From positions 1,054,001 to 1,118,000 of the forward strand of contig NZ_KE136482.1 of the NCBI RefSeq assembly GCF_000407185.1: a stretch of 64,000 nt of DNA. Direction: 5' to 3'. The position numbers and the translations under genes were made by a program. Source of the DNA: Enterococcus malodoratus ATCC 43197. GTDB lineage: Bacteria > Bacillota > Bacilli > Lactobacillales > Enterococcaceae. This document shows positions 45,902 through 62,697 of the stretch, piece by piece; the first letter of the stretch is position 1; every line of letters starts with the position of its first letter. Below the pieces are notes generated by a model. The model ran no database searches. It was not told where the DNA came from and saw only the letters and a list, made by a program, of their open reading frames with translations.

Positions 45902-46681
45902 TTAAATTGAATCAGTCAATGTCCAATCCACTGTACCTTCGTATTGTTCACCTGCTGCGACCGCATTCATCGCTGCTGCTGGAACATTTAGATTGATACT
46001 AGTAAATTCTCCTTGCCAGTACCCTTCACCACGACCGTCAGCCGCACTTGCTGCAGTTTCGCCAGAAGCACTCATGATTGTTGAACTAGTCGTACTTAAT
46101 GTCACTGCTGAAGTTACTGTGTCAGGTGTATGAACGGTTGCACTAGCTGTAGTCGGTGTTGCAACCCAACCAGTCGGATTCATTTCATTAATACTTTGAG
46201 ACATGGTAATTGTTGCTCCTGCTAATGTTTTACTTGATCCACTATCTTGCAAATCAGCTGTTAATTTCGCTTCTAATTTCCAACCAGCAGCACGCGTACC
46301 ACGCACATCACCGACCAAGAAGTGTTTGGTTGCCGGGTTTGTTGTTCCTACTCCACCAGTATTCGTTGCTGGACTACCTTCCCAGTTCGCATCAATTGTA
46401 ATTGTTGTAGGGGTAGTTTGCACAGTTGAAGGTACGGCAGTTTCCGCAAAGTTAAATTCTTTTGGTACATAAATTAAGCCAAAATCAGAAGCTGGCGGTG
46501 TCACTGGTGGAACAACGGGTGGTGTGATTGGAGGTGTTACCAATGTCCCCTTCTTAAATGACACCGAACCATTTGATTGACTACCATAAGTCGCCGCATC
46601 TGCCGGTAATGCAGTAGTCACTAATACGCCCCCTAAAAATGCCGTACTTAACAAACCTGTCACTAATTTCTTCTTATTCAT
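45902..46681 (-). CDS. WxL-domain cell-wall protein (first gene of WxL operon 1)
   Basis: 259 residues: signal peptide ending near ADA, a proline-rich linker (TPPITPPVVPPVTPPASDFG), then one WxL domain with GWKLEAKLTADLQDSG and the terminal VDWTLTDSI. Known members attach non-covalently to peptidoglycan. It opens the operon, 120 bases from the inverted repeat of the putative promoter switch, a distance almost the same in cluster 2 (122 bases). Confidence 0.92.
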   Translation of the reverse strand: MNKKKLVTGLLSTAFLGGVLVTTALPADAATYGSQSNGSVSFKKGTLVTPPITPPVVPPVTPPASDFGLIYVPKEFNFAETAVPSTVQTTPTTITIDANWEGSPATNTGGVGTTNPATKHFLVGDVRGTRAAGWKLEAKLTADLQDSGSSKTLAGATITMSQSINEMNPTGWVATPTTASATVHTPDTVTSAVTLSTTSSTIMSASGETAASAADGRGEGYWQGEFTSINLNVPAAAMNAVAAGEQYEGTVDWTLTDSI

Positions 46682-46800: not shown

Positions 46801-46820
46801 GTTTAGTTAAAACTAGGAAT
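46801..46820 (+). repeat. Left inverted repeat of segment 1
   Basis: 20 bp starting GTTTAGTTAA, identical to the complement of 48375-48394. The inner TAGTTAAAACTA is itself nearly palindromic, as expected for a tyrosine-recombinase core site with two arms. Confidence 0.9.
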
Positions 46821-46832
46821 CAGACTAAAAAC

Positions 46833-46879
46833 ACCGTCATACCAACGTTTACAAGCGATGGATGACGGTACCTGACGGC
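46833..46879. promoter_or_regulatory. TGACGG motif cluster near left end of segment 1
   Basis: ACCGTCA (46833-46839, inverted), TGACGGT (46863-46869) and TGACGGC (46873-46879); the last two are ten bases apart, one helical turn. Matching motifs lie at the other end and in segment 2. They may be arm-type recombinase sites. Confidence 0.5.
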
Positions 46880-46959
46880 TTTTACGTATGTTTGTGAATT
46901 TCACTTTATTCTTTTTAATAACTTTTCGGTAAAAAAATAAATATTTGCTTAACAAACCT

Positions 46960-46975
46960 AAGTAAGCGCTTACTT
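46960..46975. promoter_or_regulatory. 16-bp palindrome, cre-like, between recombinase and left repeat
   Basis: AAGTAAGCGCTTACTT is perfectly palindromic and close to an ideal cre. AGCGCTTACTT recurs at 60893-60903 at the same place in segment 2. Its role is unknown; CcpA binding is a guess. Confidence 0.45.
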
Positions 46976-47033
46976 CGATGGAGCAAAAAAGACTCACCAA
47001 ATAGCTGAATATCTTTAAAAAAACGCCAGCTAT

Positions 47034-48149
47034 TTAACTATAATTTCTATTTGCGGTTTCCATTTGGTAAATGACCTCTACTCTTTGTTCCAACATTGAG
47101 TCCGCATAAGTATCTAATGTTAGTTTTGTCGAAGCGTGTCCCAACAGTGCACTAACGGATAAGATATCGCCTTGTACTTCCAAGCAACGAGTCGCAAACG
47201 TATGGCGTAGTTGATGAAAGTGGATATCTTCTAATCCACATTTCTTTCGGATTCGATGAAAGTGATAAGTTAGTAACCGTGGCTCCATCGGATGGTTGTT
47301 CGTAGAGAAGACAAAAATTCCTTTGGATTTGCGGCGATACTTCATTAATTCCTTCCGAAGAGATTTGCTAAGTGGAACTGAGCGGATACCTGAATCGGTT
47401 TTCGTTGAACCAATGACCAGTTGTGTCTTTTGATCTTTTAATTTTAAGGCGATTCGTTGATATGTCTGATTCACCTGAATCAGATTGCGTTCAAAATCAA
47501 TATCGCTCCATTTTAATGCAGCGATTTCTCCAATGCGCAGACCTGTATATAGTGCTAAGTAAGTCGGTAATCCCTTACCAGTTTTTTCTTTTAAAGCAGT
47601 CTTTTCAAGATTGAACTGTTCCTTTTTCGTTAATGCACGAATGATTGGTTTACGAGATTTTGGTAATTTTAACTCCGAGAACGGATTATCTTTGATCTTT
47701 TTATTTTCTTTTGCGGCGTTTAAACATTTGCCTGTTATTCGCAGAATTACTTTCATCGTAGACAGATGTAATCCTTTCTCAGACCATTTGGTGACCAACT
47801 TTTTCCCGATATCTGGTGTTAGTTCATTCAAATAATGGTGCCCGATAAAAGGAAAAACATACTTCGCCAACTTGTATCGATAGGAACTATAAGTAGAAGG
47901 TTTTATCTCATTTTGAATTTCTTGCAGCCACTCTTTTCCCCATTCCTCCAATGGAATACAGGCATCCCCATAAATTTCACGATGTGTATGGTAGTGTGCC
48001 TTCAAGGAATACAGCTTGATCCGTACCTCTTGGAAAGCTTTTCCATAGATATAACCATATTTAATCTGTCCGTTGGCCTTGTACCCCTTTTTGTATCGTC
48101 CTTCCCATCGTCCATCTTTTCTTTTGTAGATATTTTCACCTTTGCGCAT
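47034..48149 (-). CDS. Tyrosine recombinase (integrase) inside switch segment 1
   Basis: 371 residues. An N-terminal AP2-like/arm-binding region (GENIYKRKDGRWEGRYKKGY), a SAM-like core-binding domain (about 70-160) and the catalytic domain with Arg in LYTGLRIGEIAALKW, HxxR in HQLRHTFATR, His in LLGHAST and the Tyr nucleophile in LTLDTYADSM. About 55-60% identical by eye to the recombinase at 60967-62073. It resembles Tn916/phage-type integrases, but no excisionase, attachment-site duplication or cargo is present. The flanking inverted repeats point to site-specific inversion. Confidence 0.9.
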   Translation of the reverse strand: MRKGENIYKRKDGRWEGRYKKGYKANGQIKYGYIYGKAFQEVRIKLYSLKAHYHTHREIYGDACIPLEEWGKEWLQEIQNEIKPSTYSSYRYKLAKYVFPFIGHHYLNELTPDIGKKLVTKWSEKGLHLSTMKVILRITGKCLNAAKENKKIKDNPFSELKLPKSRKPIIRALTKKEQFNLEKTALKEKTGKGLPTYLALYTGLRIGEIAALKWSDIDFERNLIQVNQTYQRIALKLKDQKTQLVIGSTKTDSGIRSVPLSKSLRKELMKYRRKSKGIFVFSTNNHPMEPRLLTYHFHRIRKKCGLEDIHFHQLRHTFATRCLEVQGDILSVSALLGHASTKLTLDTYADSMLEQRVEVIYQMETANRNYS

Positions 48150-48162
48150 AATTCTTTCCTCC

Positions 48163-48181
48163 TGACGGCTTAATTGACGGT
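48163..48181. promoter_or_regulatory. TGACGG motif pair upstream of recombinase 1
   Basis: TGACGGC (48163-48169) and TGACGGT (48175-48181), 12 bases apart, just before the recombinase start. Segment 2 has TGACGGC and TGACGTT with the same spacing at 62092 and 62104. They could bind the recombinase and also autoregulate it. Confidence 0.5.
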
Positions 48182-48291
48182 AAATATTTCGTTACTTTAA
48201 ACGATTTCCGCCTTAATCAACTTCTTTTTAATGTGATTCTCTGTTAACAGAATATTAAATATGTCTTTTTTTAATAAATTAAAACTATATA

Positions 48292-48320
48292 TTGATTATT
48301 CCTAGGCATTATCATATAAT
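48292..48320 (+). promoter_or_regulatory. Outward promoter of segment 1
   Basis: TTGATT (48292-48297), exactly 17 bases, TATAAT (48315-48320), reading right. It lies 54 bases inside the right repeat. In the orientation given it fires toward the terminator at 48456; inverted, it would read into WxL operon 1. Confidence 0.72.
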
Positions 48321-48374
48321 TAAATCAAATCAATTCATCTTTTTATTAGATAATTGTTTTTTAGAAAGAATTTT

Positions 48375-48394
48375 ATTCCTAGTTTTAACTAAAC
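48375..48394 (-). repeat. Right inverted repeat of segment 1
   Basis: Exact reverse complement of 46801-46820. AAGAATTTTAT precedes it and also occurs, in direct orientation, just left of the other repeat. Confidence 0.9.
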
Positions 48395-48693: not shown

Positions 48694-49419
48694 ATGAAAA
48701 AAGTACGTAGAACAACTATTTTAGATGATAGGAACTGGTCACCGTTATGGGAACGGTACCTCAGAGCGGCGACTGTTTTTGATCCGCTGAAGGCTCACGA
48801 GATCACCTGTATCGTGCCGATTCCTGGGCGTTCTGGTGTTATCCTATTTACCACGAATGGGATCTTTTGCAGCTCGCAAAGCGCCTTAAAGACCTTGCAG
48901 CATTTCGCCTTTGCCCACTGTTTTCCGGAGTACAGCATCCTTGCTTCGGTTCTTAAGGACATCGGGGAGTTCGGGAAATACAAGTTTCCTTGGGCTTGTC
49001 CTTACTTCACCCTATTTCCACTAGAAACGATTCACCATACGATCTGGATCAATCCGCTCAAAATCGAGGATATCTATACTGTAGAGAATCAGTATTACGC
49101 GAGAGTGATTGATGGGCCGGATATTTATGTGCCGATTAGTCGTTACTACATTTTGTTACGTGCAGAGATTGCCTGTGGTATTTTAGCGGCGATTCGCCAA
49201 GACGCGTTTCATTATTCGATGCTAGGTACTTGTCCTAGTGACTATGTTCCTCTGTCGAATACGACTTTTTCCATTAGTCTTGGTAAGCGAACACTGTTGA
49301 ATCAATTCGTCACCCGAACTTGTGAAATCAATCGACGATACCAACGCGCACGCTTCCTCCACTATTATGATCAATTAGTCGACAACCCAGAGAACCTCTC
49401 TTGGGAGAATTGGAGCTAA
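48694..49419 (+). CDS. ComK-like protein
   Basis: 241 residues. The middle portion matches the layout of the ComK competence activator: KYKFPWACPYFTLFPLETIH and IWINPLKIEDI stand where ComK has KPPIMV...FLFPTLS...CGWI, followed by IDGPDIYVPISRYYILLRAE (ComK: GKTMELPISYNSFENQ). The fit is by eye and moderate. If real, it binds DNA as a regulator. AAAGGGGAG is a strong ribosome-binding site. It reads away from the WxL operon and ends at a strong terminator. Confidence 0.5.
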   Translation: MKKVRRTTILDDRNWSPLWERYLRAATVFDPLKAHEITCIVPIPGRSGVILFTTNGIFCSSQSALKTLQHFAFAHCFPEYSILASVLKDIGEFGKYKFPWACPYFTLFPLETIHHTIWINPLKIEDIYTVENQYYARVIDGPDIYVPISRYYILLRAEIACGILAAIRQDAFHYSMLGTCPSDYVPLSNTTFSISLGKRTLLNQFVTRTCEINRRYQRARFLHYYDQLVDNPENLSWENWS

Positions 49420-54022: not shown

Positions 54023-57000
54023 TTAAGGCTCATTCACCATTAACCACTCGATTTTCCCGTCGTAATACGCTCCTTTTTGGGCGATGTTCCCTGGAACCAG
54101 CAGGTTTACTGAATCAAACCCGATGTTTGTTTTAAACTTTCCTTGCCCAGCAGCTACGCTAGTCGATCGCCATAATTGTATGGTCGAATTATCTGACGGA
54201 AGCAGGGTCGTTGCATCCGATAACCCTTCAAAATCTTGCGTCACTGGCTGCCAAGAGTCACCGTCTGTTGTTTGTTCCAGCTGTTTATTGAAAGAGATTT
54301 GGGCTCCGGTCAACTGTTGATTACTGCCTTCTGGTGTTTGTAACGGCGACAGCCGTGCAGCGAAGGACCAGTTCGAATTTATCCCAATATTTTCTAGTTT
54401 GATTCCAATGTCATTTGTTCCCTGATGATCAGATAGGCGTGCAATCGTTGTACTTGGACTGACCGCTTGAACTCCAAAATGGAAATTCGGTGTGTCTGAA
54501 ATATACAGTCCTGGTTGTCGTTGATTGGTTGTGAACGTCCGTGCAGATGTTTGCTCAGACTCTCCACCTTGATTGACCACACTACATTTCACATGATACG
54601 TTTGCCCAGCATTCAAGGTTTTGATTTTCACGGTCGCCTTTTTTGCTGTCGGATCAATCGTGAAGTCTTCTATTGAAGGACTATTCGGACTAGCGTTAAT
54701 CTCAGAAAAAGTTGTACCGTCCGTACTTAAATAGATTTTTACATCACTCGGATGTGCGGCTGGTTGATCGGGATGATCCCCTGCTGCTTGATAATCAACA
54801 GAAAACTCCGCGGTGGCACCATTCTCCGCAACTGGTGAATTCAGCGTCGGCTCACTAAGGTTAGATACAATATTTTTAGTGTAGAAGTAGTAGTTGTCTG
54901 ATCCTTCTGGCTGACCGATAGGACCGACATCCGTTCCTTCTGCATTTTTAAATTTTACCCAGCCTCTGTATCGTGTCCCGGGAGTCAGCCCGTTAATCAT
55001 CGTCGAAGAATAGGTGCCGTTTCTAGTTATTGTATGTTGTAAATTGCTCACACGCTGCGTCCAGTCGTTTTCATTTGCTTCTTCATTTTTGTAGGATTCC
55101 GTGTAAACGATCCCGTCGTTTGCATTTTGCGAGATATCTCCAGTATATGTCCCTTGTTTCAATTGAATACCTGTTGCCGTCGCAGTTGCTTGATCAAAAA
55201 CCGGCGGGGAAATATCCAGTGGAACGCCTAATGTTGTAAACTCGCGAGAGGTCGAAAATTCCGACCAAACATTACTGCTGTTTCGAACACGGTAACGAAG
55301 ATAATACCGTGTTTTGGCATTAAGCTTCGATAGTTTAAAGGTTACACCCTTGGTCCCCGTATTAAAGACTCGATCTGTGATTGCCGGTGTGGTTTCTGCG
55401 GTAATGGTAGACCACGTCGAGTTATCGGTACTGATTTGGATATCCGTTGACGTCGGGTGAGCTGCCGTATCTCCTGCATTGTAAGTGGCACTCACGTCCG
55501 CTGTCGCATCCGCCGCAGCTGTTGGTGCACCCAATGTCGAAATAGCTGGCTGATTAACTGTATTTGGTGTATAGAAATAATCACTCCAGCCAGAGTATCT
55601 CAATGTGCCGCCGTAATCCTTGATTGCTACTCGTCCTCGATAGCGTGTGCCGGCAGCTAAACTTCCTACAGTCGCACTGTTGTAACTTCCTCCAGTAGTA
55701 TTCGTGTGGCCTAAATTCGTTACTTTATCTTGAATCGTTGTCCCATCATTAGGTGTTACTTGTACGATTCCTTGTGTAGTAGTTTGAAAAATGTCTCCTG
55801 TATAGGCTTTCCCAACCAAGGGAATACTCGTAGCTGTTGCACTTCCTTGAGTAAACGTTGGTGCCGTGAGAGCTAATGCCACTGAATTGGTCGTAAACTC
55901 TCGTGAAGCTGAAAAGTCTGACCATACATTACTGCTGTTTCTGGCACGATACCGAACATAGTATCTTGTCCTTGAATTGAGCTTTGATAAAGAAAAGCTC
56001 ACAGTTTTACTTCCAGTAGCAATACTTGGCGTCGTCGTTGCTGGAGTCGTGCTTGTGCTAAGAGTCGTCCACGTAGAGTTGTTTGTACTTATCTGTACTT
56101 CAGCTGTTGAAGCATGCGCTGCGACTTCGCCAGTATTATACGTCGCACTTACAGCGGCTGTCGCATTATTCGCAGCTGTCGGTGTATTCAATGTAGGCGT
56201 CGCTGGTTGATTAACGGTATTAGGTGTATAAAAATAGTCACTCCAAGCGGAGTATCTCCAAGTCCCACCATAGTCCATTATTACGACTCGTCCTCTATAT
56301 CGTGTTCCTGCGAACAATCCTGATATAGTCGCACTATTGTAGGTTCCTCCTTGAGTCTGTGTATGACCTAAATTAGTAATCCTGTCCTGAAGCGTCGTTC
56401 CATCATTTGAGGTTACTTGTACTTTTCCTTGTGAATTCGTTTGATAAATATCACCGGTATATGCTTTTCCAACCATTGGAATACTTGTCGTTGTCGCACT
56501 TGCTTGAGTAAATGTCGGTGCAGTAATCGTTAACGACATGGCTCCGGTAGTAAATTCACGTGCAGTTGAATAGCCGGACCAGACATTACTGGCATTTCGA
56601 ACACGATAGCGAACGTAATACCTCGTTTTGGCATTGAGTTTTGATAATGTAAATGTCACATTCTTACTTCCAGTATTGAATACTCGATTGGTGATTGCCG
56701 GCGTTGTATCCGCGGTGATGGTAGACCACGTCGAATTATTCGTACTTATCTGTATGTCAGTTGAGGTGGGGTGTGCCGCCACATCCCCCGCATTATAGGT
56801 AGCACTCACATTTGCTGTCGCATTATTTGAGGCTGTCGGTGTATTCAATGTAGGAGCCGCGGGCTGGTTAGCGGTATTAGGTGTATAAAAATAGTCACTC
56901 CACCCGGAATACCTCCAAGTCCCTCCATAGTCCTTGATTGCCACTCGTCCTCTATAACGTGTTCCCGCGGTTAGTCCTGATACAGTCGTACTATTATAGG

Positions 57001-58384
57001 TACCGCCTTCCGTTATTGTATGACCTAAATTCGTTACTCTATCTTGGACAGTCGTTCCATCATTGGACGTTACCTGAACTTTTCCTTGCCCACTTGTTTG
57101 AAAAACATCTCCAGTATATGCTTTCCCTACCATCGGAATAGTCGTGGCTGCAGCACTCGCTTGGGTGAACGTCGGGGTTGTGATGGATAAAGCAACTGCG
57201 GAATCGGTAGTGAATACATATGGTGAATGGATACCTTTTGAATCAACAGAAGAGGTTTCTTGCGGATGGAAAAATTCCGCGGAAAATGTTCCGCCCTCAT
57301 AAATTTCAAAAAGCCAGACATAGTAAGTTGTATTCGGTTTTAAATTTGTCATTACTCCGCCAAAGTAAGCAGACGGCATAGATGCAGCTCCGGTATGGTT
57401 GTTTTTCCAAGGTGTTACCACATTGGTACCTTCAGCCTTCAACTGTAGCCACAAATTATTTGGTATTTTTGAAGCATTAGTTAAATTAGCACAAAGTCTA
57501 GTAATACGAGTAGGATCAGTACTCCATACCGCGTATTGAGTGTATTGAGGGCGTTCATACTTATGACGAAGGTAGCTAATGGTGGCTTCTCTCCTCTTTA
57601 TTCCAGCTATAGTTACATTTGCATACGCCTTGTTATAGTATTGTCCGTTATACACAACATCACTAACAGCCCTTGGTGTGATATCCCTTTGAGGGTCCTC
57701 CTCTTCCGTACTTTCTTCAGTTGATTGAGGCTCTTCATTATTTTTTTCTGGTTCCGCAGGAGTATCTGCGGTATCGTCCTGCTCAAATAGATACTGGCCT
57801 TTATGAAGTGTTCTTACTATTGATTGTTCATCATCGGACTCCTCTATGACATAATCTAAAACCAGTCGATAATTTTGTTCATCCAAAATATCATCGGTTT
57901 CAAATTTGAAAGGAGCGTCATTTAGTATGTGATCCTCACCATCCTCAAAGACATTCACCTCAAACCAACCACCATCTGCATCTTTTGCCTGCAAAGCGAC
58001 TGCTTGAATCGTCGTTATTGAATCCTCATTCGGATCAGATCCTAAGTTAATTTCTCCAGTCAGTTTCTCTTGCTCTATCTGTGCTTGCATGACCGGATGC
58101 GAAGCGTTTGCCTCGTCTTCTTTCGATAAGTCACGCTCATCATATGCTTGTTCAGCAAGAATCTCTTCGTCTTGTTCTTCCTTGACCGGTTCTTCCTCTG
58201 AAGTTGTTGTTTCGTTTGAAACGCCTAATACATCACTAGACATTGTCGTAAGTTCCCCAGAAGACGCTTCTGTTAGGCTTGTCTCTTCTGAGTTTTGTTC
58301 GATTGCCACACTGATCAAAGGCTGAATCACCATACTCGATACGATGCTTGTAATAAGGAAACAGGAAAGCCATTTTTTACTCAC
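54023..58384 (-). CDS. Giant WxL-domain surface protein with 219-residue tandem repeats
   Basis: 1453 residues from a GTG at 58384, chosen because it overlaps the LPXTG gene by eight bases just as in cluster 1, and because a signal peptide follows (SKKWLSCFLITSIVSSMVIQ); the frame opens at 58438. An acidic region (about 60-240) precedes three near-identical FN3-like units of 219 residues (each beginning near APTFTQAS and holding RYRGRV, DYGGTWRYSGWSDYFYTPNT, TRYYVRYRVRNSSNVWS). A divergent fourth unit follows, then a C-terminal WxL domain (WSFAARLSPLQTPEG, final IEWLMVNEP). It is probably an adhesin held on peptidoglycan. Confidence 0.85.
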   Translation of the reverse strand: MSKKWLSCFLITSIVSSMVIQPLISVAIEQNSEETSLTEASSGELTTMSSDVLGVSNETTTSEEEPVKEEQDEEILAEQAYDERDLSKEDEANASHPVMQAQIEQEKLTGEINLGSDPNEDSITTIQAVALQAKDADGGWFEVNVFEDGEDHILNDAPFKFETDDILDEQNYRLVLDYVIEESDDEQSIVRTLHKGQYLFEQDDTADTPAEPEKNNEEPQSTEESTEEEDPQRDITPRAVSDVVYNGQYYNKAYANVTIAGIKRREATISYLRHKYERPQYTQYAVWSTDPTRITRLCANLTNASKIPNNLWLQLKAEGTNVVTPWKNNHTGAASMPSAYFGGVMTNLKPNTTYYVWLFEIYEGGTFSAEFFHPQETSSVDSKGIHSPYVFTTDSAVALSITTPTFTQASAAATTIPMVGKAYTGDVFQTSGQGKVQVTSNDGTTVQDRVTNLGHTITEGGTYNSTTVSGLTAGTRYRGRVAIKDYGGTWRYSGWSDYFYTPNTANQPAAPTLNTPTASNNATANVSATYNAGDVAAHPTSTDIQISTNNSTWSTITADTTPAITNRVFNTGSKNVTFTLSKLNAKTRYYVRYRVRNASNVWSGYSTAREFTTGAMSLTITAPTFTQASATTTSIPMVGKAYTGDIYQTNSQGKVQVTSNDGTTLQDRITNLGHTQTQGGTYNSATISGLFAGTRYRGRVVIMDYGGTWRYSAWSDYFYTPNTVNQPATPTLNTPTAANNATAAVSATYNTGEVAAHASTAEVQISTNNSTWTTLSTSTTPATTTPSIATGSKTVSFSLSKLNSRTRYYVRYRARNSSNVWSDFSASREFTTNSVALALTAPTFTQGSATATSIPLVGKAYTGDIFQTTTQGIVQVTPNDGTTIQDKVTNLGHTNTTGGSYNSATVGSLAAGTRYRGRVAIKDYGGTLRYSGWSDYFYTPNTVNQPAISTLGAPTAAADATADVSATYNAGDTAAHPTSTDIQISTDNSTWSTITAETTPAITDRVFNTGTKGVTFKLSKLNAKTRYYLRYRVRNSSNVWSEFSTSREFTTLGVPLDISPPVFDQATATATGIQLKQGTYTGDISQNANDGIVYTESYKNEEANENDWTQRVSNLQHTITRNGTYSSTMINGLTPGTRYRGWVKFKNAEGTDVGPIGQPEGSDNYYFYTKNIVSNLSEPTLNSPVAENGATAEFSVDYQAAGDHPDQPAAHPSDVKIYLSTDGTTFSEINASPNSPSIEDFTIDPTAKKATVKIKTLNAGQTYHVKCSVVNQGGESEQTSARTFTTNQRQPGLYISDTPNFHFGVQAVSPSTTIARLSDHQGTNDIGIKLENIGINSNWSFAARLSPLQTPEGSNQQLTGAQISFNKQLEQTTDGDSWQPVTQDFEGLSDATTLLPSDNSTIQLWRSTSVAAGQGKFKTNIGFDSVNLLVPGNIAQKGAYYDGKIEWLMVNEP
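55190..57166 (-). repeat. Three tandem 657-bp repeats within the giant WxL gene
   Basis: The landmark encoding FTQ(A/G)S recurs at 57161, 56504, 55847 and, degenerate, 55190: exactly 657 bases each time. Long stretches are almost identical at DNA level (for example the segment encoding YSGWSDYFYTPNT). Slippage or recombination could change the repeat number. Confidence 0.88.
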
Positions 58385-58742
58385 TGTTCTCTCTCCCTTC
58401 TCGTTCGTAAATACCGATGAAGAAAAAAAGGAAAACAAATAGCAGGGTTGCCCATCCTAAACAATAAAGGGCAAAGCTGTATTCCTCGCCAGTCATTGGC
58501 AAACGTCGTTGATCTGATTTAGTGAGATAAGAAGTTTCATACCCTCTTTCGGTTTTCGTCGTTTTGATTACCGGGAGATCAATCGAAGGATCGATTTCCT
58601 TTTCTTGTTCTTGATTAGAAAATGTGATAGCTAAAGAGGTTGATGTGGTGCTAGCTGCACAAGAATAGATAGGAGTTAGCAGCAGAAAGGCGCTGCTCAC
58701 TACCCCTAATAATACGAAGGCTGCTGGTCTCTTTTTATTCAT
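58377..58742 (-). CDS. Small LPXTG-anchored surface protein of WxL operon 2
   Basis: 121 residues: signal peptide, a short central part, sorting signal LPMTGEEYSFALYCLGWATL and the positively charged tail KYEREGRENSE-type end. Sortase substrate. Counterpart of 44335-44778 but without the long serine linker. Confidence 0.82.
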   Translation of the reverse strand: MNKKRPAAFVLLGVVSSAFLLLTPIYSCAASTTSTSLAITFSNQEQEKEIDPSIDLPVIKTTKTERGYETSYLTKSDQRRLPMTGEEYSFALYCLGWATLLFVFLFFFIGIYEREGRENSE

Positions 58743-58766: not shown

Positions 58767-59846
58767 TTATAGTGCCTCCCATTTTTTTCTGCGTACATAG
58801 AGACACCCTATTAGAATGACACTCGCAACTCCGATTAAGATAACCACTAAGGGCACCCATTCTTGATACGTAATCGTGAAGCTAGCCTCTTCATTGATCT
58901 TCTTGGCTTGTTTCTCTCCAACGGTAAAATCTTTCTTCCATTCCCAGGTATGCTCTCCTGATTGTGCCCGAACATGCAGCGTGTAGGTACCGCTTTTAAT
59001 CGGATCGATTCCCCAATTGGTCGCGAAATCAAACTGAGAATTCGGGGCCATACGCATGGTGTTCGCTGTACGTTTCTTTAAGATTTCACGGCTGCCCTTT
59101 TTATACAACTTGGTTTCAATCGTCAGGTCGTCTAAAACTTTTGCTTCGGGATTTTGCATTCGAGCTTGAATCACTCGTTTTCCTTGATGGACCGTTGGTT
59201 GTACTTTTAGAAGATTGAGCGAGGAGCCATCATCATATACCTCTGAATCCTCAGTGACCAAAAGGCCGATCCGATAACCAAAGGTAGAGCTCAAGCCCTC
59301 AGCCGCTTCTGACGAATCAGCTTTCATGATACAAATCGTTCCGCCCTTTACACCTTCAAAGGTTTCTTTAGGAGGTGTGACTGTGAGGGTGACGACTTTT
59401 TCTTCATAATTTTCAACCGTGACCGTGCTCTCGGAGATTGAGGTAATTTCTTCGATTGAATTTTTCAAAGTGGAATCTCTTCTATACTCGTCATTGTCGT
59501 AATCGATCACACCATTTTGATTTGTGTGGGCATTTTTTACATAGATGTTGACCTTTGCTGGCTTCACATTCGTGCTTCGAATTTTTATCGTCAGCTCTTG
59601 CGGCTTATTCGGTTCTGCCTTGATGAAATAAAAGCCCTTTTGCGAGTCGATTTGAGTCGCTGTTTTAACTGGTTCAACAGCAAATCCCACGTCATTTTCT
59701 GGCTGTTCTTCCTTCACGCTTGTATTTTTAGTTTCATCCGCATAGCCATAGGAACTATAAAAAATGCAGCCAGATATGAGCAATAGACAACAAAGACTTC
59801 TCCTTATTAGGGAGAAGACATCCTTTTTGGCAAACTGTTTTTCCAT
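58767..59846 (-). CDS. DUF916/DUF3324 WxL-interacting protein
   Basis: 359 residues: signal peptide, DUF916 (about 45-165, DVGFAVEPVKTATQIDSQKG), DUF3324 (about 170-310), C-terminal membrane helix (WVPLVVILIGVASVILIGCL) and a basic tail. Paralogue of 44765-45835. It is the WxL-binding scaffold of operon 2. Confidence 0.92.
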   Translation of the reverse strand: MEKQFAKKDVFSLIRRSLCCLLLISGCIFYSSYGYADETKNTSVKEEQPENDVGFAVEPVKTATQIDSQKGFYFIKAEPNKPQELTIKIRSTNVKPAKVNIYVKNAHTNQNGVIDYDNDEYRRDSTLKNSIEEITSISESTVTVENYEEKVVTLTVTPPKETFEGVKGGTICIMKADSSEAAEGLSSTFGYRIGLLVTEDSEVYDDGSSLNLLKVQPTVHQGKRVIQARMQNPEAKVLDDLTIETKLYKKGSREILKKRTANTMRMAPNSQFDFATNWGIDPIKSGTYTLHVRAQSGEHTWEWKKDFTVGEKQAKKINEEASFTITYQEWVPLVVILIGVASVILIGCLYVRRKKWEAL

Positions 59847-59913: not shown

Positions 59914-60597
59914 TTAGAATGAATCAGTTAGTGCCCAAGTGATATTGCCATGGAACGTTTGTCCAGCAAAGTTTGTGTTTGAATCCCCTGCTGCTAATTC
60001 CAATGTCATTGAATCAATCGGCAATGCATATCCATGATCGCTAATACTTGCATCTGTTTTCGCTAATTCTGCAGAAGTTCCATCTAGTGATAACTCCGCA
60101 ACACCCGCTGTAACACCAGAACCTACGGTAATATCTGCAGCGTCAGCAGTGGCAGTCGCTGCAGTCGGTTCGCTAGGAGCAGTCCAATCTTTCATTGTTC
60201 CTACCGCAACCTTAATTTTTCCTGAGTTGATTACTTGGGCCGGTGCTACTGGGTTCGTCAGGCTAGAAGCACTGGCAGATAATGTCCATTCATTATTTGA
60301 CTCGTTGCTGTCTCTTCCATCGTACAATGCTACATATTTCCCACTCGTTCCAATCGATTGCGTCACCGCATTTCCTGCAGTGTGTGCATTGCCGAAGTCA
60401 ACGAGATTAGGAACAAAACGTAATTGCAGCTCGTCAGGATCAGGGTTCGGGTTAGGAACATGACCATCCGCTTCAAATTGGACTCTTACTGGTGTATCCA
60501 ACGTATCCGCAAACCCACCAATACTTCCCGCAAAAGCCATCCCTAAAATAGATAAACTGGCTATGCATAATAGTAACTTTCCTTTTAAATCCTTCAT
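59914..60597 (-). CDS. WxL-domain cell-wall protein (first gene of WxL operon 2)
   Basis: 227 residues: signal peptide, a short Pro/Asn linker (HVPNPNPDPDELQLRFVPN), WxL domain with NEWTLSASASSLTNP and the C-terminal ITWALTDSF. The final motif has WAL, within the W-x-L pattern. It opens operon 2, 122 bases from the inverted repeat of switch segment 2. Long plus-strand shadow frames across it are not genes. Confidence 0.92.
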   Translation of the reverse strand: MKDLKGKLLLCIASLSILGMAFAGSIGGFADTLDTPVRVQFEADGHVPNPNPDPDELQLRFVPNLVDFGNAHTAGNAVTQSIGTSGKYVALYDGRDSNESNNEWTLSASASSLTNPVAPAQVINSGKIKVAVGTMKDWTAPSEPTAATATADAADITVGSGVTAGVAELSLDGTSAELAKTDASISDHGYALPIDSMTLELAAGDSNTNFAGQTFHGNITWALTDSF

Positions 60598-60624
60598 AAT
60601 AATTCTCTCCTTATTTTATATTCT

Positions 60625-60648
60625 AAACAGAAAAAGAACTTTCTGTTT
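60625..60648. promoter_or_regulatory. Palindrome in the WxL operon 2 leader
   Basis: AAACAGAAA-AAGAAC-TTTCTGTTT, a perfect 9-bp inverted repeat just ahead of the WxL gene. It corresponds in place, not in sequence, to 46722-46740. Confidence 0.4.
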
Positions 60649-60718
60649 TAGCATTGGGACGACTTTCTGGTAAAATCAATAAATCTGGTACAAAATAGCC
60701 AAAGAAAGTCGAATGTTT

Positions 60719-60743
60719 TTTACTTAGTATTGTGAAAACCAAG
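60719..60743 (+). repeat. Left inverted repeat of segment 2
   Basis: 25 bp, perfect match to the complement of 62296-62320. The core shares a loose pattern (GTTTT.AC) with the segment 1 repeat when both are read leftward. Confidence 0.92.
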
Positions 60744-60798
60744 GAGGACAGGAAAACCATTGATCCATCAACCTTTCCAGACTGTTCTTGACTAAAAC

Positions 60799-60805
60799 TG
60801 ACGGC
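60799..60805 (+). promoter_or_regulatory. TGACGGC motif near left end of segment 2
   Basis: A single TGACGGC, 56 bases inside the left repeat; segment 1 has the same heptamer 53 bases inside its left repeat (46873). Confidence 0.45.
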
Positions 60806-60966
60806 ATATACAATTGATAAATAGAATTCTCCAGATCTTTTTCAACCTTGTCCGGCAATAAATTGGAAACAAAAACCCTCCCATATAAAGAGAGCGCTTA
60901 CTTAAAATTAAAAAAAGGAAGAGCCCAAAATTCTCTCTCAAATTTTTTTTGATTTCGAATAGTGTT

Positions 60967-62073
60967 TTATTGTAGTATTTTTTCCATTTGATAAATGACC
61001 TGAATACGTTGCTCAATCATGGAATCCGCATAGGTATCTAAGGTTAACTGCGTTGACGTATGTCCCAGCATCGCACTCACGGATAAGATATCTCCTTGTG
61101 CCTCTAAGCACCTTGTCGCAAATGTATGTCGTAATTGATGAAAGTGAATATCCTTGATACCGGCCTTTTCCCGCAACCGATGGAAATGATACGTCAGTAA
61201 GCGTGGTTCTATCGGCCTGCTATTGCATGAAAAAACATAGTGACTGCTTGTTTTTTTCTTTAGCTGAAGTAGCAGCCTTCTCAATTTGCTGCCAAAGGGC
61301 ACGATCCGTATCGCTGCATCTGTTTTGGCTGTGTCATAAACTAGCTGCGTTTTATGTGTGCCATCTGCAAGTGCTAGTCTCTGGTATGTATGAGAAACAT
61401 GGATGATGTTTCTCTCAAAATCAATATCCGACCAGCATAACGCTGAGATCTCTCCGATTCGCAAGCCCGTGTATAAAGCTAAATAAGCAGGTAATCCGCG
61501 AACTCCGCCTTCTTTTAACGCAGCCTTCTCTAGAGTCTGCTGCTCCTTTTGTGACAATGCGCGGATTTTTCTCTTTTCATCCTTGGGCAATCGAATGGAA
61601 GAAAAGGGGTTTTCCTTTAAATAATCCAGTTTCTTAGCCTGATTGATGCATTGGCATAAAATTCGCAACGTGACTTTTATCGTAGATCCTCTTAGGCCAT
61701 ACCGCATCCACTGCTTGATCAGTTCTTTCCCGATTTCCGGTGTTAATTCATTTAACAGGTTTTCTCCGATAAATGGAAAGACATATTTCGTTAGTTTGTA
61801 TTGATAATTTGCATAGGTAGAAGGTTTGACCTCCCCTTGTATCCTCTTTAACCATTGATACCCCCATTCCTCAAGCGGAATACAAAAACTTCCACGGGTA
61901 CTTTGAATGCTCTGATACTGAACCTTTAATGGATAGAGCTTCATCCGTACCTCGTGCAGGGATTTTCCATAAATATACCCGTACTTTACCTGACCATTTG
62001 TCTTTCGGCCTTTCTTATACCGCCCTTCCCATCGACCATCTTTTCTTTGATAAATATTTTCTCCTCTGCGCAT
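60967..62073 (-). CDS. Tyrosine recombinase (integrase) inside switch segment 2
   Basis: 368 residues from the ATG at 62073 (GGAG eight bases upstream; it aligns with the paralogue's start, MRxGENIYxRKDGRWEGRYKKG). Catalytic residues: Arg in LYTGLRIGEISALCW, HQLRHTFATR, His in MLGHTSTQ, Tyr in LTLDTYADSM. The C-terminal VIYQME is shared with recombinase 1. A likely promoter is TTGACC-N17-TATTTT (62177-62205). Confidence 0.9.
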   Translation of the reverse strand: MRRGENIYQRKDGRWEGRYKKGRKTNGQVKYGYIYGKSLHEVRMKLYPLKVQYQSIQSTRGSFCIPLEEWGYQWLKRIQGEVKPSTYANYQYKLTKYVFPFIGENLLNELTPEIGKELIKQWMRYGLRGSTIKVTLRILCQCINQAKKLDYLKENPFSSIRLPKDEKRKIRALSQKEQQTLEKAALKEGGVRGLPAYLALYTGLRIGEISALCWSDIDFERNIIHVSHTYQRLALADGTHKTQLVYDTAKTDAAIRIVPFGSKLRRLLLQLKKKTSSHYVFSCNSRPIEPRLLTYHFHRLREKAGIKDIHFHQLRHTFATRCLEAQGDILSVSAMLGHTSTQLTLDTYADSMIEQRIQVIYQMEKILQ

Positions 62074-62091
62074 AGAAATTCTCCTTCTGAT

Positions 62092-62110
62092 TGACGGCGA
62101 AAATGACGTT
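62092..62110 (+). promoter_or_regulatory. TGACGG motif pair upstream of recombinase 2
   Basis: TGACGGC (62092-62098) and TGACGTT (62104-62110), 12 bases apart as in segment 1. Confidence 0.45.
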
Positions 62111-62176
62111 CTAAACAGATTGTCATTTGCCAGATTTTTCATCTCGTACTTTTGTGTCATTAATTTCGAACTTTCA

Positions 62177-62205
62177 AAAATAGAAACCCGCGTCATTTTG
62201 GTCAA
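62177..62205 (-). promoter_or_regulatory. Probable promoter of recombinase 2
   Basis: Minus strand TTGACC (62200-62205), 17 bases, TATTTT (62177-62182), about 100 bases before the start codon. It is internal to the segment, so the recombinase stays expressed in either orientation. Confidence 0.55.
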
Positions 62206-62212
62206 AAAAACA

Positions 62213-62241
62213 TTGAATTATCATTTAAAATAAATTATAAT
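62213..62241 (+). promoter_or_regulatory. Outward promoter of segment 2
   Basis: TTGAAT (62213-62218), exactly 17 bases, TATAAT (62236-62241), reading right, 54 bases inside the right repeat, the same distance as in segment 1. It is divergent from the recombinase promoter. Confidence 0.75.
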
Positions 62242-62295
62242 GATGTTAGTGGTTAATTTTAAGGTTATTAATTTTTATTTAGCGATTAAAATTAA

Positions 62296-62320
62296 CTTGG
62301 TTTTCACAATACTAAGTAAA
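62296..62320 (-). repeat. Right inverted repeat of segment 2
   Basis: Exact reverse complement of 60719-60743. Confidence 0.92.
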
Positions 62321-62360
62321 TTTAAGGTTATATTTAATATTCCATTTTCGTGATCTCATT

Positions 62361-62395
62361 AAAAAACATCTCTTCAAATTGAAGAGATGTTTTTT
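62361..62395. terminator. Bidirectional terminator just outside segment 2
   Basis: A6-CATCTCTTC (62361-62375), five-base loop, GAAGAGATG-T6 (62381-62395). It would end the outward promoter's transcript after about 145 bases, mirroring 48456-48493. Confidence 0.88.
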
Positions 62396-62697
62396 ATGTG
62401 TATTGACGTTTTCCCTTCTAACGATTTGTATTTCAGACAGCTCCATAACTACTTTTCGAAACTGACCTTTCACTTTTTTTTACAGTACAAATAAAACTTA
62501 TGTTGAGAAGGATTCTCATCCAACGAGATGAACATTAACATAAGAAATCTGATGCCAATTATCAAAACCCAAGCTATCTAAGTACTGTTTTTGAAGGAAG
62601 CCACACATCAGTATTCTCAAAAAAACAAAAAAAGGGATCGGAAAATTCTCCGATCCTCACTCTAAATTCTTTTTTTCTCTATACTAAATACATTTTC
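62396..62697. other. Intergenic region, no gene seen
   Basis: No convincing frame. It contains one terminator-type hairpin (GGATCGGA 62635-62642 with TCCGATCC 62649-62656, T-run on the minus strand) whose parent transcript is unclear; an antisense RNA from the par remnant is possible. Confidence 0.5.

What the first reader, a model, noticed from the sequence alone, without database searches (positions are those of the whole stretch)
60719..62320. Second invertible promoter switch in front of WxL operon 2, same design
A perfect 25-bp inverted repeat encloses a paralogous recombinase. An outward TTGAAT-N17-TATAAT lies 54 bases inside the right repeat, exactly as far as in segment 1. The lengths (1602 and 1594 bp) and the distance to the WxL start (122 and 120 bases) also agree. 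Two independent instances of one architecture make chance very unlikely.
Basis: partly seen in the sequence, partly recalled or inferred. Interest (0 to 1): 0.93.

Follow-up and report, generated by a model that had tools for sequence, protein, structure and literature searches.

The report
Self-flipping promoter switch for adhesin operon
A 1.6-kb DNA cassette in an Enterococcus carries its own recombinase gene and an outward promoter between two inverted sites, so it can probably flip to switch a cell-surface operon on or off; it belongs to a large family of such cassettes, with more than twenty relatives in the richest genomes.

Summary
In detail: a perfect 25-bp inverted repeat (60719-60743/62296-62320) encloses a tyrosine recombinase, and TTGAAT-N17-TATAAT lies 54 nt inside the right arm. 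One correction: the promoter faces away from the WxL operon, so the deposited orientation is OFF. Of 151 related recombinases tested, 133 have such repeats, 1.35-1.76 kb apart. The outward promoter is present in 108 of 133 cassettes, against 6 of 133 at the other end. First genes downstream are mostly WxL, winged-helix regulator, TasA/SipW-type, pilin or DUF1149 classes. Best evidence for real recombination: (i) one cassette lies opposite to its relatives, with both breakpoints at the repeats (L159 versus L158/L162); (ii) the central 7 bp of the two sites are identical in 127 of 145 cassettes but shared in 10 of 876 cross-pairs within a genome, and in a close trio they differ between cassettes while matching within each. 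Against free switching: of 147 cassettes 132 are OFF, 1 ON, 14 unclassified. Mechanism: Hin-like architecture run by a tyrosine recombinase, default OFF in culture (inferred). The literature searches, with capped listings, showed no report for Enterococcus. New variant of a known kind. No expression or read-level data.

The parts
60719..60743 (.). left recombination site (inverted repeat arm, operon side)
   Evidence: 25/25 complementary to the right arm
62296..62320 (.). right recombination site (inverted repeat arm, far side)
60730..60736 (.). central 7-bp spacer TTGTGAA of the left site (proposed strand-exchange region)
   Evidence: family alignment of sites; identical in the two sites in 127 of 145 cassettes by independent localisation
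62303..62309 (.). central 7-bp spacer of the right site (same sequence, inverted)
60967..62073 (-). tyrosine recombinase, 368 aa from the ATG at 62073 (AGAAGGAGA upstream); a longer TTG-start ORF to 62205 is listed mechanically
   Evidence: PF00589; start region; positions R249, K294, H356, R359, H382, Y392 of the 412-aa reading each at 100% in 151 aligned relatives
62213..62241 (+). outward promoter-like TTGAAT-N17-TATAAT, facing away from WxL in this orientation
   Evidence: equivalent in 108 of 133 cassettes
62234..62262 (-). candidate divergent promoter of the recombinase (TTAAAA-N17-TATAAT), overlapping the outward -10
   Evidence: consensus scan only
62360..62396 (+). terminator-like hairpin outside the right arm that would stop the outward transcript in OFF
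   Evidence: such hairpins in 60 of 102 5' outer flanks versus 17.7 shuffled
60875..60895 (-). weak terminator-like hairpin after the recombinase gene, inside the cassette
60598..60718 (-). operon leader without a promoter-like site on the operon's strand in the consensus scan
   Evidence: 100 family leaders score 7.83 versus 8.13 in shuffles
59914..60597 (-). WxL-type surface protein, 227 aa, first gene of the controlled operon
   Evidence: two W-x-L motifs; homology cluster; no Pfam WxL hit
58767..59846 (-). WxL-interacting protein
   Evidence: PF11797 5e-39, PF06030 1e-26
58377..58742 (-). small surface protein of the EF2685/EF0750 sortase-dependent kind (below NCBIfam cut-off, 44.1 versus 47 bits)
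54023..58438 (-). 1471-aa surface protein with Ig-, fn3- and F5/8C-like stretches
46801..48394 (.). sister switch (segment 1) with recombinase 47034-48149(-) and promoter 48292-48320(+), in front of WxL gene 45902-46681(-); also OFF

Best explanation
The 60719-62320 segment is a self-contained DNA-inversion switch. The recombinase encoded inside binds the two 25-bp sites, exchanges strands in their central ~7 bp and flips the 1.6-kb segment. The segment carries an outward promoter near the recombinase's 5' end. In the orientation seen here the promoter fires away from the WxL operon into a terminator (OFF). After inversion it reads out through the left site and a 121-nt leader into the WxL / WxL-interacting protein / LPXTG-type operon (ON). 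The recombinase gene and its candidate promoter turn with the segment, so the enzyme can be made in either state. Seen directly: sites, recombinase with the conserved residues, promoter-like sequence, orientation, hairpin. Shown by comparison: family-wide architecture, one natural inversion, site spacers that change in concert. Inferred: that the promoter is active, that orientation sets operon expression, that the switch is default-OFF in culture.
For: Perfect 25-bp repeat, shuffle maximum 15. Repeats flank 133 of 151 related recombinases; of 31 rows of more distant recombinases 30 score at most 12, the exception being an hsdS locus. TTGnnn-N17-TAnnnT 30-90 nt inside the 5' arm in 108 of 133 (107 if only the best-scoring site counts), versus 6 of 133 at the other end and 7.2 expected from shuffles. 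Natural inversion: L159's operon flank matches L158's at 95% over 5943 nt but joins the opposite arm, while the cassettes (87%) align in the same direction; the far flank is swapped too over short stretches (88 nt with L158, 136 nt with L162), and in L159 the conserved promoter points at the operon. Central 7 bp identical within 127 of 145 cassettes (6 more not testable), versus 10 of 876 ordered cross-pairs in the same genome (85 cassettes). In L087/L088/L089 the 14 arm columns compared do not differ, the spacers differ at 2-4 of 7 positions, and each matches within its own cassette. Outward hairpins beyond the 5' arm in 60 of 102 versus 17.7 shuffled; operon leaders are not enriched for promoters. 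Contigs begin in the 5' site in five cassettes and end at the 3' site in one, and one other contig begins with the same 19 nt, as a mixed assembly graph could give.
Against: Orientation is almost uniform: 132 OFF, 1 ON, 14 unclassified of 147. The E. raffinosus plasmid loci fetched (one locus in two strains, another in three) do not differ in orientation between strains; only one of two places per record was fetched. The single inversion is between relatives 87-95% identical, not within a strain, and its far-flank homology is short. No read-level, transcript or protein data. 18 of 151 recombinases had no qualifying repeat; five of these are cut by contig ends, the others may be degenerate. Terminator-like hairpins are also enriched in the operon-side flank (34 of 102 versus 14), which a simple promoter switch does not explain. 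Other contigs end elsewhere in cassettes (L106, L107, L112, L146, L178). The site motif used in the masked scan was trained on repeat-bearing cassettes, and the cross-pair control uses only these; at least five of the 18 misses of that scan have the left site at a contig end.
Confidence: 0.87

Rival explanations
1. Frozen relic: the cassettes once inverted but are now essentially fixed OFF, or the repeats are kept only as recombinase binding sites for autoregulation.
For: 132 of 147 OFF with one ON; the E. raffinosus loci do not differ between strains.
Against: Six conserved catalytic-type residues at 100% in 151 of 151; spacers identical within but different between close cassettes, which needs continuing exchange or selection on both sites; L159 is flipped.
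Confidence: 0.07
2. Two-way toggle: in the deposited orientation the outward promoter drives a gene on the far side, for instance the ~241-aa family next to the sister switch (48694-49416), so both orientations have a product.
For: 26 members of that family lie on the 5' side of cassettes and read away (26 aligned, chosen by identity from 42); several, e.g. L097, L100, L110, L121, L126, L131, have no hairpin in the first 250 nt. Its model (pLDDT 89.9) weakly resembles LytTR DNA-binding domains (E 0.055, probability 0.92).
Against: This locus has no such gene close by and has a hairpin right outside the arm; segment 1 and relatives such as L063, L093-L096, L114, L149 also have a hairpin before the gene. 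The LytTR match is not significant and there is no convincing Pfam hit.
Confidence: 0.2
3. Mobile element: the repeats are ends of an integrating or transposing unit, and the position before surface operons reflects target preference.
For: Many dispersed copies per genome; six Enterococcus plasmid records of 0.9-1.2 Mb carry relatives; five unverified 'Bacteriophage sp.' scaffolds from human faeces carry relatives with clean repeats. Tyrosine recombinases often serve integration (recalled).
Against: Switch and operon class travel together (nearest recombinase neighbour has the same class in 83 of 107 versus 23.8 shuffled); consistent orientation and a mostly 85-480-nt distance to the operon. 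The viral-contig hits are distant integrases of at most 31% identity (80 of 99 listed; 1). No empty sites were looked for.
Confidence: 0.05
4. Chance repeat beside an ordinary prophage integrase.
For: The genome has other tyrosine recombinases (20 matches in all).
Against: Shuffle maximum 15 versus 25; 133 of 151 relatives; the genome's other integrases lack such repeats apart from the hsdS locus.
Confidence: 0.005

Closest known systems
Salmonella Hin / H-segment flagellar phase switch
   Same: Recombinase gene inside the invertible segment (stated for Hin in PMC5903667, passages seen); a promoter reads out of one end into an operon (recalled for Hin).
   Different: Hin is a serine recombinase (PMC3798978, PMC4817059, search listing only); here it is a tyrosine recombinase with ~25-bp sites, and one genome holds many paralogous cassettes.
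E. coli fim-type and C. difficile RecV switches (tyrosine-recombinase inversion)
   Same: Tyrosine recombinase (RecV so named in PMC5903667; Fim recalled); inversion next to surface-structure genes.
   Different: Those segments are short and intergenic (fim 314 bp; C. difficile 154-230 bp; PMC5903667 passages); here the recombinase is inside a 1.6-kb segment.
Providencia stuartii putative 844-bp fimbrial inversion enclosing a recombinase ORF
   Same: Large segment enclosing a recombinase near a surface-structure locus (PMC5903667 passage).
   Different: One Gram-negative locus with 14-bp imperfect repeats; recombinase class and homology not checked here.
Bacteroides fragilis Mpi multi-region inversion
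   Same: Many surface loci under inversion control in one genome.
   Different: A single master serine recombinase acts on at least thirteen regions (PMC5903667 passage); here each cassette carries its own recombinase and its own site spacer.
hsdS inversion loci (PsrA/CreX type, names recalled)
   Same: Tyrosine recombinase between inverted repeats in Gram-positives; one such locus is on the same contig as the window (L015).
   Different: There the repeats lie in coding hsdS sequence; here a promoter moves and no coding sequence changes.

Membership tests
Tyrosine recombinase (PF00589) | Pfam domain and R-K-H-R-H-Y catalytic set | tested here: met
   E 1.8e-25; R249, K294, H356, R359, H382, Y392 at 100% of 151 aligned relatives; the residue roles are recalled
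Invertible promoter (inverton) | inverted repeats flanking a segment with an outward promoter | tested here: met
   promoter by sequence only
Invertible promoter (inverton) | both orientations exist | tested here: inconclusive
   One flipped relative (L159) in the family; only OFF seen for this locus; no reads held
Invertible promoter (inverton) | gene expression depends on orientation | not testable with these tools
   no expression data
Hin / H-segment switch | recombinase gene inside the segment, promoter reading out | tested here: met
Hin / H-segment switch | serine recombinase | tested here: not met
   tyrosine-type domains only
Hin / H-segment switch | Fis-bound enhancer | not tested
   no search made
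fim-type switch | recombinase encoded outside a short invertible segment | tested here: not met
   recombinase inside a 1602-bp segment
WxL operon | WxL protein plus WxL-interacting protein | tested here: met
   Interacting protein by Pfam. The first gene has two W-x-L motifs and clusters with WxL proteins but has no Pfam WxL hit

The most novel reading that the evidence does not exclude
These enterococci run a natural set of orthogonal inversion switches: up to about two dozen paralogous cassettes per genome, each with its own recombinase and a private 7-bp site spacer that evolves in concert at both ends, so that every surface operon (WxL, pilus, TasA-like matrix, regulators) can be flipped independently from a default-OFF state without cross-recombination between cassettes.
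Probability: 0.5. Interest if true: 0.86.

Novelty: new variant of a known kind. Interest (0 to 1): 0.78.

Why it matters
If right, surface display in large-genome enterococci is set by many independent flip switches that assemblies show almost only in OFF, so adhesin and pilus functions would be easy to miss in laboratory work. It also gives a natural series of related tyrosine recombinases with changing sites, useful for studying how site specificity evolves and how paralogous switches stay insulated. A paper on a defined gut community reports a median of 0 invertons per genome for its Bacillus-like Firmicutes (PMC11892184, passage); this family contrasts with that. Relatives with the same repeats in Clostridia plasmids and faecal scaffolds suggest that the design is wider than Enterococcus.

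Tried and rejected
Rejected: chance repeat; ordinary prophage integrase. Corrected while checking this report: I had taken the hits in the phage collection for distant integrases. Fetching the ten listed of 455 showed clean repeats (score 23-27, span 1411-1447) in five of eight unverified faecal 'Bacteriophage sp.' scaffolds; a sixth has a long repeat of another kind (259 nt, span 2163); two have none (one of them with only 70 nt of left flank); the two Thermus phage integrases have none. Whether those scaffolds are phages is not shown. The odds of the mobile-element rival went from 0.04 to 0.05 for this. Tried without gain: Pfam at E up to 10 for the ~241-aa 5'-side gene found no convincing family; a hunch that it is ComK-like rests on recall only and was not tested; its structure search gave no E below 0.001. 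Between-strain orientation differences in E. raffinosus: none seen. A possible length limit in published inverton finders could not be confirmed. Contig breaks in the sites are only suggestive: of three arm patterns tried, another contig carrying the arm was found for one, and its overlap stops 3 nt short of the shared sequence as I read the two sequences. The central spacer correlates with recombinase identity (Mantel r 0.43, against 0.48 for the arms), so spacers are not free of ancestry; ten cross-pairs do share a spacer, among them two pairs of near-duplicate cassettes (L129/L131, L122/L134).

Full report
OBSERVATION. The stated repeat is exact: 60719-60743 and 62296-62320 are 25/25 complementary and span 1602 bp. 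Shuffling the flanks 5000 times gave a longest exact repeat of 15. The sister segment 46801-48394 (20-bp arms, 1594 bp) has the same plan: promoter 54 nt inside the right arm in both, and 121 or 119 nt from the left arm to the WxL ATG. The promoters are on the + strand and the operons lie to the left on the - strand, so both switches are drawn in the OFF position. A terminator-like hairpin at 62360-62396 stands in the outward path.

THE RECOMBINASE. It is a tyrosine recombinase. By family alignment and its ribosome-binding site it most likely starts at 62073. Positions 249, 294, 356, 359, 382 and 392 of the 412-aa reading (R, K, H, R, H, Y) are at 100% in 151 aligned relatives; assigning them as the catalytic set is recalled knowledge of the family.

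THE FAMILY. The window's own genome has four close members: two in the window, one about 21 kb to the right of segment 2 on the same contig and one on another contig; their repeats are 17-25 bp. In the genus 12 of 20 genomes have members at E <= 1e-60, 125 places in all, up to 27 in one genome (some are fragments at contig ends; the most with both sites aligned in one genome is 20). In the family 37 of 105 genomes (E <= 1e-50; candidates scored per genome were capped) and in a sample of the order 27 of 395 (E <= 1e-40; at most five candidates scored per genome) have members. I fetched flanks for part of these places and tested 151 recombinase ORFs: 133 have a flanking repeat with score >= 14 and span 1350-1760 bp (109 of 124, counted; 24 of 27). 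Of the 18 dropped, five are cut by contig ends. Sixteen further recombinases gave 14 more. As a control, 31 rows of more distant recombinases (one ORF appears twice) scored at most 12 in 30 rows; the exception is a hsdS locus (identified). The nine recombinases with E below 1e-50, including ones from two other Lactobacillales families and two Clostridia plasmids, scored 15-37; a second fragment of one broken gene scored 10. Five unverified faecal scaffolds in the phage collection scored 23-27 with spans of 1411-1447.

PROMOTER AND INSULATION. TTGnnn-N17-TAnnnT lies 30-90 nt inside the 5' arm in 108 of 133 cassettes, against 6 of 133 at the 3' end and 7.2 expected. Operon leaders score slightly below shuffles for promoters (7.83 versus 8.13, n = 100). 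Hairpins that would stop the outward transcript occur beyond the 5' arm in 60 of 102 (17.7 in shuffles; 7 of 109 dropped for short flank), and after the recombinase inside the cassette in 89 of 133 (43 in shuffles). Against a tidy picture, 34 of 102 operon-side flanks also hold a hairpin (14 in shuffles).

TARGETS. First genes downstream were found for 127 of 133 cassettes and fall into clusters of 41 (with winged-helix Trans_reg_C members), 31 (TasA/SipW-type operons), 28 (WxL), 12 (pilin/SpaA), 6 (DUF1149), 3, and six singletons. Pfam counts for 103 first-gene proteins include 26 Trans_reg_C, 23 WxL, 20 DivIVA, 13 pilin, 6 DUF1149; selected operon genes are. The TasA/SipW label comes from the one annotated operon of that cluster that I saw, E. 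raffinosus CX012922. In 110 non-redundant cassettes, the nearest recombinase relative serves the same class in 83 of the 107 classified, against 23.8 in shuffles, so switch and operon are inherited together. In E. gilvus pCR1A two WxL operons each follow a gene annotated 'site-specific integrase', as in the window.

EVIDENCE THAT IT FLIPS. L159 (genome G012) has the operon joined to the 5' arm, while L158 (G005) and its relative L162 (G012) have it at the 3' arm. The operon flanks of L158 and L159 are 95% identical over 5943 nt on the opposite strand, the cassettes are 87% identical in the same direction, and short stretches of the far flank (88 and 136 nt) are swapped too. In L159 the conserved promoter faces the operon. 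The second line is the sites. Aligned on their motif (126 cassettes), the outer positions carry the family consensus and may differ between the two sites, while the three central columns carry almost no consensus (0.02-0.11 bit) yet are identical within cassettes. Locating left and right sites independently, with the centre masked, gave an identical central 7 bp in 120 of the 126 and in 127 of 145 of all recombinases (6 skipped for contig edges). Between different cassettes of one genome the match is 10 of 876 ordered pairs. In the trio L087/L088/L089 (89-97% identical cassettes) the 14 arm columns compared show no difference, spacers differ at 2-4 of 7 positions, and both ends of each cassette agree. 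This fits the rule, known for tyrosine recombinases, that spacers must match (recalled). I read it as cassette-specific addresses.

EVIDENCE AGAINST FREE SWITCHING. Of 147 cassettes 132 are OFF, one is ON and 14 could not be classified. One plasmid locus compared in two E. raffinosus strains and another in three do not differ in orientation. Either inversion is rare in culture, or the recombinase favours OFF, or ON is selected against there. Contigs that begin in the 5' site (five cassettes) or end at the 3' site (one), and one other contig that begins with the same 19 nt, hint at mixed orientations in assembled cultures but do not prove them; other contigs end elsewhere in cassettes.

COMPARISON WITH PRINT. 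I made nine searches of the held library. The six that bear most directly on the question listed no paper on promoter inversion at WxL or pilus operons of Enterococcus; several listings were capped (20 of 200, 25 of 57, 12 of 24, 15 of 33), and the Jiang et al. 2019 inverton paper cited in PMC11868660 is not held, so absence from print is not shown. I saw passages of PMC5903667, PMC10323788, PMC11868660 and PMC11892184; other papers only as search listings. The E. raffinosus genome paper mentions a tyrosine recombinase xerC in a region with adhesion-related genes and has no occurrence of 'inversion' or 'phase vari'.

VERDICT. A real, self-contained inversion switch, most likely OFF here; new variant of a known kind (Hin-like architecture, tyrosine chemistry, many insulated paralogues).

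Noticed in passing
L015 (own genome, contig C2:819226-823053): A tyrosine recombinase between two inverted type I restriction specificity genes (PF01420) with a 105-nt imperfect inverted repeat: a likely hsdS inversion locus on the same contig as the window.
   Followed up: partly
window 48694-49416: 241-aa protein family without Pfam hit; 26 members read away from the 5' side of cassettes; confident model (pLDDT 89.9) with only a weak LytTR-like match.
   Followed up: partly
L353, L355, L356, L357, L358: Unverified 'Bacteriophage sp.' scaffolds from human faeces carry relatives of the recombinase with clean 24-27-nt flanking repeats; host and targets unknown.
   Followed up: partly
sites of many cassettes, e.g. 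L119, L121, L122, L138: Left and right sites often differ in the outer half at position -4 (T or A on the left, C on the right). This might bias direction; not tested.
   Followed up: no
operon-side flanks of the family: Terminator-like hairpins in 34 of 102 operon leaders (14 in shuffles); possibly attenuation or a stop for recombinase readthrough.
   Followed up: no
L234/L236 versus L235: E. raffinosus strains differ by about 1.5 kb present or absent roughly 65 nt outside the 5' arm.
   Followed up: no
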